From: Dermanyssus gallinae
Lineage: Eukaryota > Arthropoda > Arachnida > Mesostigmata > Dermanyssidae
Reading direction: 5' to 3'
DNA length: 64,000 nt
Assembly: GCA_003439945.1 (NCBI GenBank)
Contig: QVRM01003999.1
Coordinates: forward strand, 333,792 to 397,791
Shown here: positions 3,336-56,657 of the stretch, in pieces
How the letters are laid out: each line of letters begins with the position of its first letter
How positions within the stretch are numbered: position 1 is the stretch's first letter
Translations under genes and position numbers: made by a program
Notes under the pieces: model-generated
The model's database searches: none
The model's input: only the letters and a program-made list of their open reading frames with translations
Told to the model about the DNA's origin: nothing

Positions 3336-4577
3336 ACCCCACGGCAACTGCTTGTGTTCGATAGACACACGAACAACATTGAGTGAGATAGAAACGAAGA
3401 CCAAGAAGACAAGGGCAAACGGGAAGGGAAGGGATGAGGAGCAACCCATCGATGGTGGCCGGCCACAGCTGCATCGTTGGTTGACTGACTGGTGGCGCTG
3501 GCCACGCCGCGTTCATTGTGGTGCGGCGCTTCTGATGCCGAGAACGACGGTCGGCCTCGACCCGTCAGCTTTTAGGTGACGCCGCCGCCGCCGAGACGGG
3601 GGTGAGCGCCGGCGGCACCGAACGGCGGCGACGGCAGCGGCGTTTGGAAGACCAAAGGAGAAAGATCAGGAATAAAGAGAATCGGGGCCGGGGTAGAAAG
3701 GCACAGCATACAAGCTTCACGCACGCACAACAAAGTGACAAAGAAAGAACTGAACTAGAGAGAGAATAGCAAAGCAAGGAAGGATGCCAGTTAGGAAGAG
3801 GGAAACGAGACCGAAAATGGGGGAGGAGAGATGAAGGGAATCAGGACTTCGAGGTCGAGCGGCACCGCAAGCAATCTCGCGGAAGCGGGAGATACGACCG
3901 GCGAAGGATGTCGAGGTTGCCGGTGGTGGTGGTGGTAGTGGTGGTAGCTTGCCGAGGGGCAGGAATAGACGAGAGACGACGTTTCGACGGCGGCAGCGTT
4001 CTGCTATAAAAATCGCCATGTAGGCGTGCACGCTGCACGCAGGACTCATAAAACTAACGGACTCTCACGTAACGACCCACGGCAACGGCGGCCGCCACCG
4101 GGACAGCGTTCGGCTCGTCACGCAGCCGCCAGTTATGCGGCGGGCGGAGACACAAAACCTTTGCTAGACGCGCAAATTGTAGTCACCAGTTCTACCGGCC
4201 GCGAATGATCAACAACAACAACAACGACAGCAACAACAAAACAACAACAACAATAATACAGCAGTCACTAGGGTAGCCTCTGCTGTCGGAGCAACCGGCG
4301 CCACTTTGCGTCGTTCGAGGTCCAACCGTTGCACAAAGACGCAGACGAGCAACGGCCGCAGCAACAAAAACGACACAGCGGCAACAATAATCAACGCAGG
4401 CCGTCAGCACCGCCAGTGATAGTAGCGTTGTTAAGATGACCAGAACAACGTTGAGGTCTCCACTGACCACCGACAACCCGACGAGACTCGCCGGATACTT
4501 CCTCAGCTAGCCTTAGGGGCACAACGCTAGAGAACAGAAACATCCAATGTAAGACTAGATTCTTCGTCAGTGTTAAT

Positions 4578-4579
<2 letters not shown>

Positions 4580-4609
<30 letters not shown>
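4580..4609. repeat. (AT)15 microsatellite
   Basis: Uninterrupted AT dinucleotides, ending about 10 bp before the mariner terminal repeat. Confidence 0.97.
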
Positions 4610-4613
<4 letters not shown>

Positions 4614-4619
4614 ACAGGT

Positions 4620-4642
4620 AGTTCAACAGGTTCTTAAAATGA
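4620..4642 (+). repeat. mariner left terminal inverted repeat
   Basis: 23 bp beginning AGTTCAACAGGTTC. It matches the reverse complement of the right end at 21 of 23 positions. Confidence 0.9.
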
Positions 4643-4788
4643 GCTTTTCAGAATTCGAATTTTGGCGCTTTCACCGCTATTGGAAACGGCAACTTTTCGA
4701 CTGCTAGCAGTCAAAATATTATGGTGATTGGCCATTGCGATTTCGTTTGATCGCTTTTCCCGTGCAACGTATCGGCGTGATTTTGAAA

Positions 4789-5870
4789 AATGGAGAAAAA
4801 GAGTTTCGGGTGGTTATCAAGCATTTTTATTTCAAAGGTTGGAATGCGACCCAAGTAAAAACTGAGTTAGACGAGGTGTACGGTGACTCTGCGCCATGTT
4901 TTGCCACTGTTTCCAACTGAATTAATGAGTTAAAAAGTCGCAGGAGCACCGAGAATGACCTACGTTCAGAACGCCCTAAAAACGGCAACTGGTGAGGAAA
5001 ACGTGGAAAATTTGCGAAAAATCGTTGCCGCAGATAAGCGAGTGAACATTAGGGAGATAGCGGAGGCCTTGGGGATCGGTTTGGATAGGGTGAATTCATC
5101 CTGCACGAGAACTTGAAGATGAAAAGCTCAGAGCAAAATGGGTGCCGCATTTGCTCAACCAAGGTCAAAAAGACGCGCGTGTTTCCGCTTCACAGCGAAA
5201 TTTGGCCAAGATGTCGAAAAATCCGTCGGATTTTTGGCGCAGATTCGTGACCGTCGATGAAAGCTGGGTCGATCACTACACTCCCGAGACCCAAGAAGCA
5301 TCTCGCCAATGGTGTGCACCTGCTAAAGGACTTCCGAAGAGGGTGCGGACAACAGCATCGGCCGGAAAGATGAGGGCTACGGTTTTTTGGGACCAACGTG
5401 GAATAATTCTGGTCAACTACCCTGAGAGCGGTAAAACGATCACGGGAGAATATTCTGCAGGACTGTTGGTCTGCCTGAAGCAAGAACTCATCGTGAAACG
5501 GCCCGCTTTGCAGAAAAAGGTTCTCCTTGTTTCACCAGGACAATGCTCATGCACACAAGTCGCGACAAGCATCGGCAAAACTGGCCCAACTGAGGTTCGA
5601 ACTTATTGAACAACCTTTCTTTTCTCCAGACCTGGCCCCCACTGATTATTTCCTTTTTAGACATTTGAAGAATAGTCTCGGTGGAAACCGTTATTCCAGC
5701 AATGAAGAGGTTAAGGCTGCTGTCAATGCCTATTTTTAGTCTAAAGACGCGAAATTCTACTCAAGAGGTATAAATGCTCTGAAATCTCGGTGGGAAAAGT
5801 GTATTGAGCTTCTCGGGGAGTATATCGAATCAGAAAAAATGAAAAACAAGATTTGGAAAATTCTTGGTTT
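4789..5870 (+). pseudogene. mariner transposase, disrupted
   Basis: In an active element this enzyme would bind the terminal repeats and cut and paste the element. The N-terminal helix-turn-helix region is near 4789-5100. The WVPHLL block is near 5137. The catalytic triad is visible: D in VTVDESWVDHY (codon 5256), D in FHQDNAHAH (codon 5539) and D in SPDLAPTDY (codon 5644). The last two have exactly 34 residues between them, which defines DD34D. Lesions: a shift near the presumed start (4790), a TGA at 4918, frameshifts near 4970, 5100 and 5518, and a TAG at 5737. The frame then continues through a KSRWEKCIELLGEY-type C-terminus. All three catalytic aspartates survive even though the frame does not. 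Confidence 0.92.
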
Positions 5871-5893: not shown

Positions 5894-6195
5894 CCAGTGT
5901 TGATTATCCGCACGAATTTTGTCCATTGGCGTTCAAGCCTATGGGAGCTCCAGCCCCCTTGCGCTCAAGCAGATTCAGCGCGTAGGTAGAAGCCTTAATT
6001 TTTCAACAAGAGACTCGAGAGCATCCTTGCGTCAGAGGGTGTCGCTCGACATTTAATGAGGAAATGCAGCGCCTGATCGGGGCACATTGTTGAACTGGGC
6101 TAACCCTGGGTTAGAGAACCCGTAATCACACGTTCGCGCAAAGACAATTGTCCACTCCATAGTGCCAACATAGCGAAGTTATATATATTAAAAAA

Positions 6196-6255
<60 letters not shown>

Positions 6256-9200
6256 ATATATGTGAACACTTTCACGTGAAAGTACATTACTACGAACATG
6301 AGTTGCCACTTTATTACAATCTCCGTGTCGCGCGTATATTGAGAAATAAGTATTGCAAGACAGCGCCACATCAATCGCAATGCACTCTGCTATTTGAGAA
6401 CTGGTGCTTAGATTCATTCAGAGAGAGCATTATTGTCTAAAACTTAAATATACAAGCTCATGTGTGGGTTTAGTGTATAAAGCTAGCTATGTGTACTTGC
6501 GCCAACAGCATTCATGATGGCTAAATCAAAAAATCCTAAAAAGTAGTGCGCTAGTCTTATTGTCGCTAGAAATGACGAGCGTACACACCGTCGATTGGCG
6601 ACCTAATTGCGGCTTACTACGTCGATCTTACCTGATTATGCATTTCGAGGCTAATCCTACAGCATCAACAATATTAGGAACTCATTAGGGTTAAACCCTG
6701 CTTAACCTTCACGTGCTGAACTTACAGATGAGTACGCAGCGTTTTGCTCATAAAAATAGACATTTCCTCGAACTTAGGTCAAGCGCATGCTATTTTATTC
6801 TATACTGCGCGCATCTTACGCCAGTATGCAAGGTTAAGGTATTCATAATGGCTTGTTACTGCGTTGTCGTCTGGTTCTTAATGAAATGTTGTTCCGTATA
6901 TATATATATATAGATATAGATATAGATAGCTGTTTTTATTCCCACGGTGTCTAAACTAAAATAATTAATCAGTCTATATCAACGATTGGTGGTTTATGAC
7001 AGCGGCTCGTCGAAGGCAAACTACACCGAGGCAACTTGTGTCAGCTAAATTACAGCAAAAATGCATTGCTTTTTGTTTTGTAGTTTAGGTTCAACCGTTG
7101 CGCAAAGGCACAGACGATATAGAGTGCTCACCCCCCAACATTTGCTGCTAAATGGATAGAGATGCAAAAATCATATTTATCTTAGACTCAGTAGTGCTTG
7201 ACTTCGTTTAAAAATCTTTTCCTAGACGTGCGGCTTGCGTTCATTCGGGCATCTAGCAGCTTGCCAGCTAGCTAAATTTAAAGCGTCCTTCCGAGTAGTG
7301 TACGTTGTTCGCGTTCAGAGGCAAGAGGGCAAGGGGGGGGGGGTTGCGATAGGTTTGCGATAGTTGTGTCGCATAGAGAAGACTCTAGGTGGGGCGGACG
7401 GGGGGCGGGGGAGGGTTAGTGGGAAGGGGTCTAAAGTAATAAACACTACGAAAACCTAGGGAGAAGAGATGGCCTGGAGCCAGTTGATTGATTACGCATG
7501 ATCTTTCTGCAGGCGTCACGTTGCCGTCGCATCGTCTCAAGCATCCGCCTCAAATACGTACACACACACACACACTCAGACACATGCACCACGGTGCGGT
7601 GAACGTGGACGTGACACGTGGAAGAGCACACGTAACGCACGCCCGGGAAAAGAAGTAGGAGAATAAGACGAAGGAGAAGAAAAAAGCAGAAGCAGCAAAA
7701 TACGTCATCATGACGAGACAGTTTGGAAGCAGACGGCTGAAGTGTCGCGGCCAAAACTAGCCAGTTACGGCTCTAGAACGGCAGCGGCAGCAGCAGCAGT
7801 TGAGTACGCAGAGCAGGCGGCCAAGCAACCGGGGTTAGCGCAGTAGCCTGAGGCGTGATAATGATCATTGAAATTCCCTCGAGGCGGCGGCGCTCCATCG
7901 ACGAGGACGGAGGACGACGAGAACTTCGATGATGACAATGATGACGGCGTTCGGTCGTCTGTCGTATCGATTCGTCGTCATTGATAACTACGAAAGATTA
8001 CGCCGGTGGCAGCGATGTGTGATGGTGATGGTCGTGGGCGGCGACCCGCGACCCATGCGCTGTCGACGTATTATTCTTCGGGCCTGTGAAAGGTAGGGCA
8101 AGTCGGCGCAAGATGGTGGTGATGGTGGTCCTACTCCAATGGTGCTCCTGTAGCTTCTGCTACTACTGGATGGCTCTCGTAGTAGTAGTAGTAGTAGTGG
8201 CAGTGGCAGTGCGATTCTTGCAGTGGCCGCGCGTCAGCTTGTCGATCGAATATTCTTTGAGCGATGCTCATTGAGATTAGATGATAAACCAACCACCGCT
8301 GAGAGTCAGCGGCCATGCTGCCACAAGGACTGTGCCGGAGACACTCTAGATATGTGGTCGGTCCTCGGTGCAATAAAGATATGCCTCACGGCGATTTTAG
8401 GCCCGTAGAGAGCGAGTGATAGAGAGGTCTAGGTGTTAGCAACAACTATAACATTTTAAATTCGAGTGGGCTTCTCGCATATGTGCGCATAGTTGAACTG
8501 TGGCACTGTAGTATGTCAAGCCCTATACCGAGCTAGGGTATCAGGCGCCACCCAGACCACCGCTGCTGCACATATGCAGACAAACCCTTCTCCTTCATTT
8601 AACATTTGACACAACCGCCAGAGATACATCGGGGAAACTGAGAGCCCCACGAAGTTGGGGGCTCTTAGCATGACTGCATCGGCGGCGGCGACGGCAACGA
8701 AAACGCCAGCAGCAGGGGTTGCCTGAGCCTCACCGAGGTAATAGTATCTGTAGGCTGCCGGCGGCTAAACCAGACAGACCGGTTGGTCAGTCAGGTCGTG
8801 CGTAGTCGGCCAGCACGTGACACGAATCTCATCCCCGCATTCCCCCGGGAGGAGGTGTTTCTGGTCCCCAGCTTTCTGGTCCCCCCCCCCCCCCGGTTGT
8901 TTCTGGACGGTCGGACAACAACGACGACGACGAGGACGCTGCCGCCACCGCTGCCACCACCACAACCGCCGTCAATGAGCTGCAAGATAGACGCTGTAAG
9001 ACCCAGAGGCCGGACAGAGACGCGAAACGATACGGGCTGGGCTAAACCCGAGGGGTTCGTTGCCTGGCGGCCACCGTTGTGTTTCCGTGTCCTGAGCGCT
9101 ATAGCGGACGTCGGGCGGATACGATGCCAACGTACAGACCGACGGATAGCAAGGGGTTAGACAGATACAGCCGGACAGTTAGACAGACGGACATACAGAT

Positions 9201-31859: not shown

Positions 31860-32866
31860 TTGATGGAGTCTGTGAGCATCCGCCATTCCCCCAGACCACG
31901 GGGTACCCCCAGGAGGACAACCTGAGTCCCCTGCTCTTTGTTGTTCTCCTAAGCGACCTGCCCGCCCTTGTCAAGGAGCTGTATCCCATGGTGGGCATTC
32001 TTCTATATGCGGACGACATCGTCATGTTTAGTCGCATCAGGCGGGACTTCCAGGCTTCCATCAAGGTGCTGGAGAAGTACTGTGACAACAACGGCATGTG
32101 TGTGAACGCGTCGAAGACCAAGGCTGTCAAGTTCAGGGCAGGAGGCGCCCTCGCCTCTCACGATCGTCTTCGACTACGCAACTCGCCCATTGAGTATGTG
32201 AGCAACTTCTGCTACCTGGGGGTGGTCTTCTCCAGCAGGGGTGTGTGCTTTAGCAAGCATATCACCGAGCGCGTGTCAAAGAGCGTCGTGGCCATGGCGA
32301 CGATCGGCGAGCCACAGAAGCTCTCACTGTCGACCGCCCTTCAACTCTTCCACCTCAAGGTATCTTCGGTTGCCTCCTACGGAATCGATGTCATCTGGGA
32401 GCACCTGTCGGCACATCAGCTGGACCAACTGGACAAGGTCAAAGCAACGTTCTTGAAGAGAGTCTTGGGCTTACCGCGGAACGCCCAGAACCGACTGGTG
32501 TACGCGTTGGCCGGGACAGGACCATACCTAGAGGACCTCGTGCCACGCTTCCAGCTCCGGCCCACACCTGCTCTTCAATCGTTCAGGACTACCTTCGCAG
32601 AGAAGATGCGCGACATCCCCACGGATTTCTACCGAACTCGAGCCATGACATCCTCTGCTTGGAAGGAACCCCTGCAGGACCTCCGACATGTCATCACTCG
32701 ATACGCTGTGCATGGCCTCCATCACCAGCTTTGTTCCCGAAGAGACTTTCATGAGCCGCAAGCAACCTGTATATGTAGACATTGCCTTCAGCATTGCCCC
32801 CGATATCATTTCGAGGGGTGCCAGAGCTTCGATAGCCTACGACGGTTGGCAAGGGAAAGTAACTAA
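31860..32866 (+). pseudogene. Non-LTR reverse transcriptase, 5'-truncated, mostly open frame
   Basis: The best preserved reverse transcriptase in the window. TGYPQEDNLSPLLFVVLLSD (about 31890) corresponds to the GxPQGDxLSPLLF motif, with G changed to E. The catalytic box ILLYADDIVMF has YADD at 32006-32017. Next come NASKTKAVKFR and FCYLGVVFSS, then the thumb (SVASYGIDVIWEHL, LPRNAQNRLVYALAG). The frame is open for 293 codons from 31988 to the stop at 32864. The terminal Cys-rich CICRHCLQHCPRYHF looks like a non-LTR C-terminal Cys/His motif. AATAAA lies at 32925, 59 nt past the stop, fitting an element 3' end. The fingers and any endonuclease are missing. Related to the 22.7-kb relic. Confidence 0.88.
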
Positions 32867-42800: not shown

Positions 42801-43363
42801 TTCATTTCAGTAACTCCTCATTGAGCTCAAAATTTTCATTCATACACATTTCAGTAAATTAACAAATAAGGGCACTTTGCAGAAAAAAAAAGCTGTCGCC
42901 CGTGTCTGCTGAGAGCATCGTTCTGGATGACTTTGGACTCGACGAGATATTCCCATAAAGCCTCCCCCCAAACGGGAAATAGCAGAGACACATCTGTAAC
43001 TGCGGCTTAGACATGTGGCCATCAACGATACATTCGCACAGACTTTGCGATCAGCGGGGCCTCCCTGCCTTCAAGAACCAACAGGACTTCTCAGATGGCG
43101 GCGCCGATATGACGAGCTATCCTTAGTTTCTCTCGAGAAGAGTCGAAGTATCTGATTTTGAGTTTGGTGACTGGCTCCCTCGCACCTTCAGTTGTCGGTT
43201 ACGGAACGTGCCGTCCTGGCCAAGCGGCTACCCCCATCAAACAAAACAAATTGTGCAAATGCTCTGAACTCCTACATGCATGCGCAATTTCGTTTCTCTA
43301 GCGTTCGAGACACTAAGAAGGCCAATTGAAATTTTGGAAACATACAAATAGCTTGGCGGAACC

Positions 43364-46839: not shown

Positions 46840-47384
46840 GCGCGTGCGTGTCATGCTACCTTTGTTCAAGAGTGATCACGATCCCGTTTCGTTATCTATC
46901 TAGATGCACGGGTAAGTGGATCTGTCAGCACGCCAACATAATTATCGGCGTGCTGATTTCGAGCAAATGGAGTCGACGGTGGACGAAGTTAACTGGAAGT
47001 TTTTTTTTCATGAAGCTGTGTTCGTTGAATATTTGCATTGTCCGCCTCACCGGTCTTCTGCACCACCTTATCGCGTGTCATGCCCCCATACCCTGTTTGT
47101 CATCTGCATTACATTCAGCCAGGTTGAAGCGCGATTTGACTTACTTCATGCAATTTGCAGAACGTCGGAGAAAGCTGCTATTCAAAGCGTTTATTCTTCG
47201 ACCATGCAAATCAGCGTCTTTGATTGCAACATGACATCGTTCTCCTGTCTTCTAACGGTAATATCCTTACAGACCCAACCTCTTAAACAGCATGAAAATG
47301 ACTGCGTGGAGAATCTCGCTCCAATTGCTAGCCATGCGCTTGTAGAAGCCCAGCTCCGGCCATTGACATCGAAAATCTTAGAAA

Positions 47385-47994
47385 CCCCTGATGGGCCTCC
47401 GCCCAGTATCTTCAAAAACTAGCGGGTGTATTGTCCATCATATTCCGTGTTATATACACGACGTTTAGTGAAGTCGAAAGTTTCACAGGCATTTCGGGCA
47501 CACCTGTTAAAGAAGGGTGAGGGTGAGAATATGACCAATTATCAACCTGTCCTTGCAGGGTGACATTATACACTTATTAATGAACAAAATTGTGGTTGAC
47601 GATCTTATTATCAAATTTCTTGCTGGCGCAAGTTGGCTTGACCTAAACTAACATGTCACAAAGAGGCGTCCCGCTACGTGAACTTTGTGGCTAGAAGTCA
47701 TGCAAAAACGAGGTATGGCCCGTGCCCCGTTAAGACTTCTACTGTGTGTACATCGATTTTTCGCGGACCTTTGACTAGGCTAGACGATGGTTAACTCCAT
47801 CCTCCAAAACGATGCTTGTTTAAGCTTAGTGAATCATCTACATTCGAACATTAACGTTATATAGTGTGTGCAATCTTTATGCGGACTATTTGAATGAAAT
47901 GATACTTGAATGAAGGTATACAGCTTGCAGCATCTACAACAGACAGCTATTGATGACGATGCTCACTCTGGCCTGGAATTGTCCGTTATCAAGT
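47385..47994 (+). pseudogene. CR1-like LINE reverse transcriptase, 5' portion (interrupted)
   Basis: Blocks across frames follow the order of a CR1/Jockey-like reverse transcriptase. ETPDGPPPSIF stands near the PDGIP site. YLQKLAGVLSIIFRVIY and the KEG/ENMTNYQPV segment follow (about 47405-47555). Then come NKIVVDDLIIKFLAGASWL (about 47584), a YIDFSRTFD block (about 47748) equivalent to the catalytic LDFxKAFD, LYADYL (about 47877) where YADD is expected, and LQHLQQTAIDD with VIKCAV (about 47928-48000). Many stops are present. The sequence is cut by a nested element at 48006 and resumes at 49128. The catalytic YADD is degraded to YADY. Confidence 0.65.
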
Positions 47995-48005
47995 GTGCTG
48001 TTCTT
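47995..48005. repeat. Nested LINE target-site duplication, left copy
   Basis: GTGCTGTTCTT, identical to 49117-49127. Confidence 0.88.
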
Positions 48006-49116
48006 TTTTTTTAACAATATAGTTTTATTATAATTTAGAAGAATATATATAATGCTTCACGGCGTTGCTGCTCGTCGACCTAGTTGCTCTTCTGCGCGCC
48101 GTAGCCGCTCTATCGCTCATGCCCGTGAGGAAGTCCTGCCCGCCCCCTGGCGCGAAGGTCCGTCTCCATCCAGTCTCGAGAGATCGCGTTACCTCTTTGG
48201 ATCTCCAGGGACAGTCGCTGGGAGAAGAAGGCGTGCGCCCTCTTGTCCATCGTCGCCTACCGTAACGCGTCGCCAACCCGAGAGATCAATGTTACAGTGA
48301 GGGGCCCAGAGCCACCCATCGTCTCGAACGCGAATGGCGAAAAGTGGTGCGCTCGACTTAGGTCCGCATACTTTCTTATCTTTGAAGTCTCAGCTCGCAA
48401 AACGGCAGTCCCCGGGCGGGACGCGCCGGGACCGACAAGGGAAGGGGTCAGAGAGTCGGTCACCGTCGCATCCCACACCAGGGAACGACCCTTATAGAAG
48501 GGTATCAAAGTCATACCGTCGGGGCGCTTACCGTCGTCTCTTGAAAGCCCAGGTGGTTCCAGGACGCAGGGAATCCCCGCCCTCCGCAGCGATTTTGCAA
48601 GCATTTCATTGAGGGCAGTGTGTCTTGGGCGCCGGCCCGCTGCGTGAGCGCAAGACAGGCCGTGTCTGGCGAGTCGCCCGACGGGCTCGCCACACGAGCA
48701 TCTGTGTGGCTTCAACCAAATCAGCCCTCAATCTCAGGCCAACGCATATCCGGGTAGATTGGTCATCAAGGCGGGTACCCAGTGAGTCAGCGGGTAGTGC
48801 ATGCAACCAGTCGCTTGCTGCTGGGCGAGCGACAGCTAGAAGGCGTGCCTTGTCCTGGTCATCCCCGCATTCTTCAAGCAGCGAACTAAGCGAAGCTTCG
48901 TGGGCCTTCTCGGCCCAGGCTCTCTGGCAGGCTAGTCTATCGGGACCAGGCGATGAAGCTTGAAATCCAGTCGCTATATCGTCACGAGCCGCCTCGAACA
49001 TTGCCTGGGCCGCCGGCGGGAGCAGGCGCTGGACATTTTCCGACGTAGCATGCATCGAGGCAGCCACGGCCGGGCGCGCCAATGATCGAGCCGAAGGGAG
49101 ACCAAGGCCGCCCATG
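48006..49116 (-). mobile_element. REL-type LINE, 5'-truncated, nested insertion
   Basis: A 1.1-kb insertion on the minus strand, flanked by an 11-bp direct repeat (GTGCTGTTCTT). It ends in a poly(A) tail (plus T run reaching 48012) with AATAAA-like sequence just before it. It begins inside the thumb region of the reverse transcriptase (MGGLGLPSARS), so it is 5'-truncated, the usual outcome of target-primed reverse transcription. It interrupts a CR1-like LINE: host coding blocks continue on both sides. It has few lesions, so it is among the youngest elements in the window. Confidence 0.9.
48118..49116 (-). pseudogene. LINE C-terminus: thumb, zinc knuckle and restriction-like endonuclease
   Basis: From 49116 the frame reads GGLGLPSARSLARPAVAAS and continues to LGTRLDDQSTRICVGLRL, a post-palm region. 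After one frameshift near 48715 comes a CCHC-like knuckle, HRCSCGEPVGRLARHGLSC, then RPRHTALNEML. The endonuclease core follows: DGKRPDGMTLIPF and LVWDATVTD, which fit the PD...D pattern of PD-(D/E)XK nucleases. KIRKYADLSRAHHFSPF and ETMGGSGPL follow. A TAG at 48256 interrupts the tail, which continues FFSQRLSLEIQRGNAIS. A C-terminal restriction-like endonuclease is characteristic of CRE/R2/R4/NeSL/Hero-type LINEs; the exact clade is inference. Confidence 0.85.
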
Positions 49117-49127
49117 GTGCTGTTCTT
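49117..49127. repeat. Nested LINE target-site duplication, right copy
   Basis: GTGCTGTTCTT, identical to 47995-48005. Confidence 0.88.
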
Positions 49128-49358
49128 AGGATAGGTCATATATATTTGAATTATAGTCTTAACAAGCAAGTTATTCGCGCGTGTATTTGTGACCTTCGTG
49201 TAATTGTATCCAATGATCTTAAACTTCGAGAGTATGCTGCTGAAGTAGCGCGAGCTTCGTTTATGATATGTGACTTGGCACTTAAGTCTTCTATTGTCAA
49301 AATACCCTACGTTTTAAGACAAGCTATATCACGCCTTTGTAGTAGCAAAGTTGTCTAA
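49128..49358 (+). pseudogene. CR1-like LINE reverse transcriptase, 3' portion
   Basis: A 70-codon frame (49146-49358) reads CDLRVIVSNDLKLREYAAEV then ARASFMICDL. This is the DLGVxxSxDLKxxxHxxxVxxKA block that follows the palm in CR1/Jockey-like reverse transcriptases. It continues the relic at 47385-47994 on the other side of the nested insertion, with the same strand and correct order. The C-terminus beyond about 49350 is not recognisable. Confidence 0.75.
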
Positions 49359-49680
49359 TAACGAGCAATGTGGTCGCGAAGCTTAGCATGTGAAAGGTTT
49401 TAATAGAAAAAAAGCTAGATTTATTAGATTATTTTGTGCCAGCGTTGTGAGAACGCATCCGTGCAGTCAAACGAATTTTTGAGGTGAACGAACCAATAGC
49501 TGTGCTTACTCTGTCCCAGTCTCCTCGATAGTATCCGTAGGAGTAGCTTTTGCGAATCATATATAAATGACTGACCTTGGCTCGCGCCTAGTGAATGCTA
49601 AAGCTCTGCCTGCTATGTATACATGAATAGGATAAAAATATACATGTCCGCGCAAAGAGCAGCTGCGACTGAGGCAAAGA

Positions 49681-56251: not shown

Positions 56252-56339
56252 TTTTTCAGTATTTCCCTACAATTGTGGGACCCAAACGTGTACCCGCGTA
56301 GGCTCACCACCCCCTCCTCAATCCATAGAGCCGATGATA

Positions 56340-56657
56340 GCGGCGGCGTTTCCCCTACACACTGCGAGCGAGAGTTGCTGACGCAGAAAACTCGCCCTCG
56401 CGCTGGTCACCCGTGTTAGCACTAATTTTGACACCTAGGTCTTTGAGGAGGATACTTGTGCTCTTGCTGATCGGGCCCATCGTTTCCATGGCGACGGGTA
56501 CGAAGTGATATCTCCTCGCCAAATCAGAGTATTTGCGTTTCTTTGCTGATCTCGGCATGTTCAGCAACCTACCCTGACCTGATGGCGCTGTGCATCAGGT
56601 ATGACGGAGCACTGTACATGATACCGTGGCATCCCATACCAGGCATTGCCGTTGGAC
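56340..56657 (-). pseudogene. REL-type LINE, endonuclease C-terminal fragment
   Basis: On the minus strand the frame opens right beside a (TTA)n array with CLVWDATVSCTVLRHT, the endonuclease strand containing the WD pair. A stop follows, then KKRKYSDLARRYHFVPVAME, TMGPISKST and TGDQREGEF near the end (about 56380). This parallels LVWDATVTD, KIRKYADL and ETMGG in the nested 48-kb copy. The upstream zinc knuckle and RPDG block are missing; the (TTA)n array starts where they would be. Non-functional fragment. Confidence 0.78.

What the first reader, a model, noticed from the sequence alone, without database searches (positions are those of the whole stretch)
47385..49358. Nested retrotransposons with intact insertion signature
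A minus-strand LINE fragment (48006-49116) sits inside a plus-strand CR1-like reverse transcriptase relic. The junctions carry an identical 11-bp repeat, GTGCTGTTCTT, at 47995-48005 and 49117-49127. A poly(A) tail lies at the 3' junction and the 5' end is truncated in coding sequence. The outer element's blocks continue in order across the gap. This dates the two families relative to each other and shows target-primed insertion by an element that carries a restriction-like endonuclease.
Basis: partly seen in the sequence, partly recalled or inferred. Interest (0 to 1): 0.75.

Follow-up and report, generated by a model that had tools for sequence, protein, structure and literature searches.

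The report
LINE copy nested in older LINE
A short, broken copy of one jumping gene sits inside the wreck of an older one, with a duplicated 11-base target at both edges; the nesting is ordinary, but the younger family pairs an R2-like cutting enzyme with a separate gag-like gene, an arrangement described mainly for the other group of such elements.

The parts
46884..47994 (+). outer element, left part: decayed relic, probably of a LINE reverse transcriptase
   Evidence: colinear blocks with paralogs L042, L043, L044, L047; RVT_1 hit E 0.0018, below cut-off, in paralog L043
47995..48005 (.). target-site duplication, copy 1 (GTGCTGTTCTT), at the 3' junction of the insert
   Evidence: exact match to copy 2, the only two in the window
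48006..49116 (-). inner element: 5'-truncated copy of a 5.05-kb two-ORF LINE family with R2-type endonuclease
   Evidence: 39 other scored copies at 93-96%; maps to 4000-5109 of the stretch with full-length copy L027
48006..48012 (-). A-run at the 3' end (7 A outside the TSD, 9 with it)
   Evidence: sequence
48013..48022 (-). 10-nt 3' tail CTATATTGTT between AATAAAA and the A-run, also at C5827 and C3297
   Evidence: 24-base pattern: 12 matches up to 2 mismatches, 0 in the reversed control; read
48260..48727 (-). open stretch of ORF2 with CCHC motif and restriction-like endonuclease domain (E57, RPD70, D86 invariant)
   Evidence: alignment of 41 sequences; AF2 pLDDT 87.6; R2 proteins top of Foldseek and VIA-align
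48609..49115 (-). open stretch of ORF2 between RT and endonuclease, in another frame than the previous part
   Evidence: tblastn with P0076, 94%
49117..49127 (.). target-site duplication, copy 2, at the truncated 5' end of the insert
49128..49461 (+). outer element, right part
   Evidence: paralogs L046-L050; protein-level relatives at ten other places

Best explanation
A LINE mRNA of a non-site-specific family was reverse-transcribed into an already old LINE relic by target-primed reverse transcription. The family's ORF2 carries an R2-type restriction-like endonuclease that would nick one strand, prime cDNA near the short A tail, copy about 1.1 kb and stop; a staggered second cut 11 bp away made the duplication. 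Shown: the boundaries, the duplication, the A-run, the truncation, continuity of the outer element, the predicted fold of the endonuclease, the two ORFs of the family. Inferred: that this enzyme did the cutting, that ORF1 takes part, and the order of steps.
For: Exact 11-bp repeat flush with both ends. Family 3' end plus A-run on one side and truncation on the other. Six of 20 other copies have exact 11-13 bp TSDs at unrelated sites; L054 and L076 have 12 and 11 bp. Outer continuity in L047-L049. Endonuclease domain matches R2 by fold and weakly by profile (E 0.014-0.032; DNA polymerase mu next at 0.15); RT matches R2 chains at E 2.3e-05 to 2.7e-04.
Against: No allelic empty site. L050 and L042 do not support continuity above controls (L050: 22 and 13 of 200 controls reach the score; L042: 200 and 200). 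For L049 one random-left control of 200 scored higher (108 against 107). L047 and L048 score 4 higher with two repeat copies than with one. In one search, 5 of 20 family copies gave no convincing TSD and 4 are confounded by microsatellites.
Confidence: 0.88

Rival explanations
1. The truncated copy was inserted in trans by the machinery of another (APE-type) LINE that uses the A-run, not by its own family's restriction-like enzyme.
For: Other LINE RTs are abundant here (150 scored RVT_1 matches of 46,427 candidates); the N-terminus of the L003/L007 ORFs looks APE-like by eye, untested. An 11-bp TSD, A-run and 5' truncation fit both.
Against: The family has long open ORF2 stretches, a 5'-truncation series and similar TSDs in several copies; 3' ends are family-specific and, in the copies read, mostly lack long A tails.
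Confidence: 0.07
2. The two outer blocks are different elements and the 11-bp repeat is chance or a later duplication.
For: Only three of the four through-junction paralog alignments beat controls; 147 identical 11-mer pairs at 500-2500 bp occur in the window overall.
Against: Flush at both edges (2.6e-5 per pair at this spacing); L042, L043 and L047 carry left and right blocks in order.
Confidence: 0.03
3. About the 3' tail only: the bases between the AATAAA-like signal and the TSD are filler added by the reverse transcriptase, or come from exchange between elements that share this 3' end, and are not a piece of parental flank.
For: Tails are mostly private in the copies read; no donor of the 33-nt tail of L053 was found (1 match, itself); at C5827 and C3297 the shared tail is separated from the element body by extra sequence of roughly 200 and 90 bases; the family's 3' end also follows unrelated sequence at L055, L083, L084. 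PMC2881922 (passage) mentions non-templated nucleotides in strand exchange.
Against: The window copy, C5827 and C3297 share ten bases and the last two sixteen; at C3297 33 nt are followed by A8 and a possible TSD (12 bp with one mismatch, 2 of 300 shuffles; exact part only 7 bp, 43 of 300).
Confidence: 0.5

Closest known systems
R2 and other restriction-like-endonuclease LINEs (CRE, R2, R4, NeSL, HERO; passages of PMC4640811, PMC5678591)
   Same: RT followed by CCHC and an endonuclease of R2 fold at the C-terminus; a C2HC-like finger before the RT in ORF2 (PF13913 E 0.00027, below cut-off); TPRT footprint
   Different: Two ORFs, where PMC5678591 describes a single ORF for this group; no fixed target site; knuckle spacing CX1CX9HX3C in the window copy instead of CX2-3CX7-8HX4C; clade not determined
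HERO clade
   Same: Described in PMC4640811 (passage) as containing many non-specific families, some with microsatellite targets; several copies here border AAT or AT microsatellites
   Different: No HERO reference sequence was at hand; relation untested
I factor / Jockey-type LINEs
   Same: gag-like ORF1 with three Cys-His motifs (I factor, PMC2881922 figure-legend passage)
   Different: Those carry an APE endonuclease before the RT; here Pfam found none in ORF1 or the ORF2 pieces scanned, and an R2-type nuclease follows the RT. ORF1 homology untested
Entamoeba EhLINE1
   Same: ORF1 plus ORF2 with a restriction-enzyme-like nuclease (PMC3118788 passages): a precedent for two-ORF LINEs with this nuclease
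   Different: Protist; its ORF1 was not compared here
BLAG R2-like elements of Blattella (PMC7650587, sections 17-18 read)
   Same: R2-like and non-site-specific
   Different: One ORF, 3.2-3.7 kb, low copy; sequences not compared

Membership tests
LINE with restriction-like endonuclease (RLE) | reverse transcriptase domain | tested here: met
   PF00078 E 5.7e-17 in P0076; R2 chains the only PDB matches up to E 1
LINE with restriction-like endonuclease (RLE) | R2-type endonuclease fold C-terminal of the RT | tested here: met
LINE with restriction-like endonuclease (RLE) | single ORF (as described in PMC5678591; Entamoeba in PMC3118788 is an exception, so not a strict criterion) | tested here: not met
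   ORF1 with CCHC knuckles upstream; stop-start overlap AATGA in 8 of 9 copies where the junction pattern was found, of 20 searched
LINE with restriction-like endonuclease (RLE) | CCHC knuckle with spacing CX2-3CX7-8HX4C before the nuclease (PMC5678591) | tested here: not met
   a CCHC is at that place but spaced CX1CX9HX3C in the window copy
R2 clade | insertion at one site in 28S rRNA genes (recalled criterion) | tested here: not met
   unrelated TSDs in the copies with a clear one
HERO clade | placement in the RT tree with HERO references | not testable with these tools
   no reference sequences held
CR1 clade (outer element) | RT phylogeny with CR1 | tested here: inconclusive
   RVT_1 E 0.0018 in one of seven pieces; LINE-RT alignment E 0.003; too decayed for a tree, none built
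target-primed retrotransposition | TSD, 3' A-run or fixed 3' end, 5' truncation | tested here: met

The most novel reading that the evidence does not exclude
An animal LINE lineage with an R2-type nuclease has taken over a gag-like ORF1 of the kind found in I/Jockey-type APE LINEs, coupled its translation to ORF2 through a stop-start overlap, and spread without a fixed target while carrying short pieces of parental 3' flank: a recombinant of the two great LINE groups.
Probability: 0.35. Interest if true: 0.55.

Novelty: new variant of a known kind. Interest (0 to 1): 0.35.

Why it matters
The nested pair itself only orders two insertions. The inner family is more useful. It departs from the usual, though not universal, picture in which LINEs with a restriction-like endonuclease have one ORF and a fixed target. 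If its ORF1 came from the other LINE group, one could ask directly whether acquiring a gag-like ORF1 goes with loss of target specificity. Tails shared between copies might serve as lineage marks.

Tried and rejected
Pfam on six short ORF pieces of the window gave nothing, and phmmer of the 156-aa piece against PDB gave nothing up to E 10. The ORF1 model from two sequences is worthless (pLDDT 33.4) and was not searched. NCBIfam added only weak hits far below cut-off. Searches with the flanks found only the window itself plus weak paralogs, so no second haplotype. The 33-nt tail of L053 has no donor in the assembly. BLAG elements were set aside on the paper's description only. Literature: seven answered searches; in their listings I saw no paper on a two-ORF animal LINE with this nuclease and a gag-like ORF1, but most subscription papers and Repbase are not held, so absence is weak. 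Papers seen: passages of PMC4640811, PMC5678591, PMC5753468, PMC2881922, PMC3118788; abstract and outline of PMC4120745; passages and sections 17-18 of PMC7650587.

L046/L076 at first looked like an insertion at the same outer site; it is another insertion of the inner family next to an outer-family block, 11-bp TSD AACTAAAGTTA. That the outer element goes on beyond it I saw by eye only; BLAST found one side.

Rows dropped: one search aligned the window piece with 40 of the 75 hits (short or partial ones left out). In one search, L021 and L032 are near-identical loci (98% with flanks) and count as one insertion. In one search the 3' end was recognised in 19 of 20 long loci and 12 of 19 short ones; the others were missed by the pattern or by the stretch fetched.

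Changed in checking: the odds for 3' transduction went from about 60% to about 50% because the two other copies with the same tail are rearranged.

Full report
What is in the window. The genome is 958,664,175 bases in 7160 contigs, so a eukaryote, unnamed here. At 47995-48005 and 49117-49127 stands the same 11-mer, GTGCTGTTCTT, found nowhere else in the window on either strand. In the window as a whole, 50 of 1,948,877 position pairs at this spacing (1107-1137) share 11 bases. Between the copies lies a minus-strand element that ends in a short A-run (9 A, two of them part of the repeat) and starts inside coding sequence.

The inner family. A DNA search of the genome scored 40 of 2046 candidates: the window copy and 39 others at 93-96% identity. 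Long stretches for 20 of the 39 were fetched, and short 3' stretches for the other 19. Of the 20, seven are uninterrupted from end to end, about 5.05 kb (two of them one duplicated locus, L021 and L032), two more reach the 5' end with internal gaps (L035, L036), and eleven begin at various points: a 5'-truncation series. The window copy covers about 4000-5109 of that length and changes frame at least once.

Two ORFs. Upstream of ORF2 lies a gag-like ORF. It is open over 620 codons between stops (610 from its first Met) in one of the seven full-length copies (L039) and broken in the other six; ORF2 is broken in all seven. Pfam finds zf-CCHC in it (E 7e-06 in P0197), and I read three motifs by eye, CX2CX4HX4C, CX2CX4HX4C and CX2CX3HX6C (sequence). 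The protein search, capped at 7996 candidates, found two relatives, both open from Met to end: P0198 (604 aa, 96%) and P0199 (608 aa, 72%). ORF1's stop and ORF2's start overlap as AATGA in 8 of 9 copies where the pattern was found, of 20 searched. Mismatches to a reference copy by codon position are 0.035, 0.030, 0.048 in ORF1 (11 copies, p 3e-7), 0.0525, 0.0457, 0.0666 in the N-terminal part with another reference (9 copies, p 0.002), and 0.0205, 0.0117, 0.031 in ORF2 (19 copies, p 3e-27); third position is highest in each. The p values treat sites and copies as independent, so they are optimistic. PMC5678591 (passages) states that LINEs with this endonuclease have a single ORF and the APE group two; PMC2881922 (passages) shows a gag-like ORF1 with three Cys-His motifs in the I factor; PMC3118788 (passages) speaks of ORF1 and ORF2 of Entamoeba LINEs with such a nuclease. 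Hence two ORFs with this nuclease are not unheard of, but I saw no animal case in the searches named under Tried and rejected. Whether ORF1 descends from APE-LINE ORF1s was not tested.

Insertion footprints of the family. In 20 copies, six have exact 11-13 bp duplications that at most 1 of 200 shuffles matched (L027, L033, L034, L035, L036, L040; in L027 75 bases from the 3' end). Five have 12-15 bp with one mismatch (L021, L025, L028, L032, L038; 0 to 6 of 200 shuffles; L021 and L032 are one insertion). Four are confounded by AAT repeats (L023, L026, L029, L031), and five show none that is convincing (L022, L024, L030, L037, L039). One search adds L054 (12 bp exact, 0 of 300), L076 (11 bp exact, 1 of 300) and L078 (12 bp with one mismatch, 2 of 300; exact only 7, 43 of 300); the window copy by the same test has 11 bp, 3 of 300. 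The sites are unrelated, so no target sequence is apparent.

3' tails. The copies read share the end AAATTATAAT, followed by AATAAAA- or GAAATAAAT-type sequence and then mostly private bases; a few share more, such as L066 and L068 (8 bases). The window copy has ten bases, CTATATTGTT, before its A-run. The 24-base end occurs exactly at one other place (C5827) and with one mismatch at C3297; there are 12 matches with up to two mismatches and none in the reversed control. C5827 and C3297 share six further bases, and C3297 runs on to 33 bases followed by eight A and a possible duplication with one mismatch. The 33 bases have no other match. Against a simple reading, in both places the shared tail is separated from the element body by extra sequence, roughly 200 bases at C5827 and 90 at C3297. 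L054 has CTATATT followed by a duplication that could be 17 bp with one mismatch, so part of the tail may be the native end of a subfamily. Short transduction of parental flank is possible at about 50%; added filler or exchange between elements with the same 3' end are the rivals.

The outer element. DNA relatives were found for the left part (three beyond itself) and the right part (five). On the joined flanks, L047, L048, L049 and L050 align through the junction in one piece; L042 and L043 carry blocks on both sides in order; L044 has only left and L046 only right blocks. With the left flank shuffled 200 times, or replaced 200 times by random window sequence, the real score was reached 0 and 0 times for L047, 0 and 0 for L048, 0 and 1 for L049, 22 and 13 for L050, and 200 and 200 for L042. 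One repeat scores best in L049 (107 against 95 for two and 87 for none). L047 and L048 favour two over one by 4 points; in the L047 alignment this comes from a length difference left of the site. L050 is flat (70, 67, 71). So a single outer element is well supported, the single-copy target by one paralog. The RT nature rests on paralog L043 (RVT_1 E 0.0018, below cut-off; six other pieces gave nothing; alignment to LINE RTs of the genome at E 0.003). Ten weak protein relatives of the right part exist. CR1 itself is not shown.

Relative age. The inner copies differ by 4-7% from the window copy; the outer paralogs by 32-39% in the through-junction alignments and by about 16-21% in the best short blocks. 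With the nesting this orders the two insertions; it does not give years, and it does not prove that all outer copies predate all inner ones. At L046/L076 another inner-family insertion lies next to an outer-family block.

Verdict. The finding as stated is ordinary. What raises it above ordinary is the two-ORF family with an R2-type nuclease and no apparent target site.

Noticed in passing
window 56324-56642 (-), 43003-43167 (+), 5925-6113 (+): further, diverged relics (36-48% protein identity) of ORF2 of LINEs related to the inner family
   Followed up: no
window 31901-32641 (+): relic of another LINE reverse transcriptase resembling L003/L007, E about 5e-6
   Followed up: no
L076 (C3039:14000-16700): another inner-family copy beside an outer-family block, 11-bp TSD and about 28 extra bases at its 5' junction
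   Followed up: partly
L055, L083, L084: the family's 3' end follows unrelated upstream sequence; possibly non-autonomous elements sharing the LINE tail
   Followed up: no
L023, L026, L029, L031 and others: several inner-family copies border AAT or AT microsatellites; target preference or tail expansion not separated
   Followed up: no
P0086, P0185, P0097, P0115 and others: relatives of ORF2 carry ubiquitin-hydrolase (PF00443), PHD (PF00628) or SAP (PF02037) domains by precomputed Pfam
   Followed up: no
L021 and L032: near-identical loci on two contigs, 98% including flanks: haplotype copies or a segmental duplication
   Followed up: no
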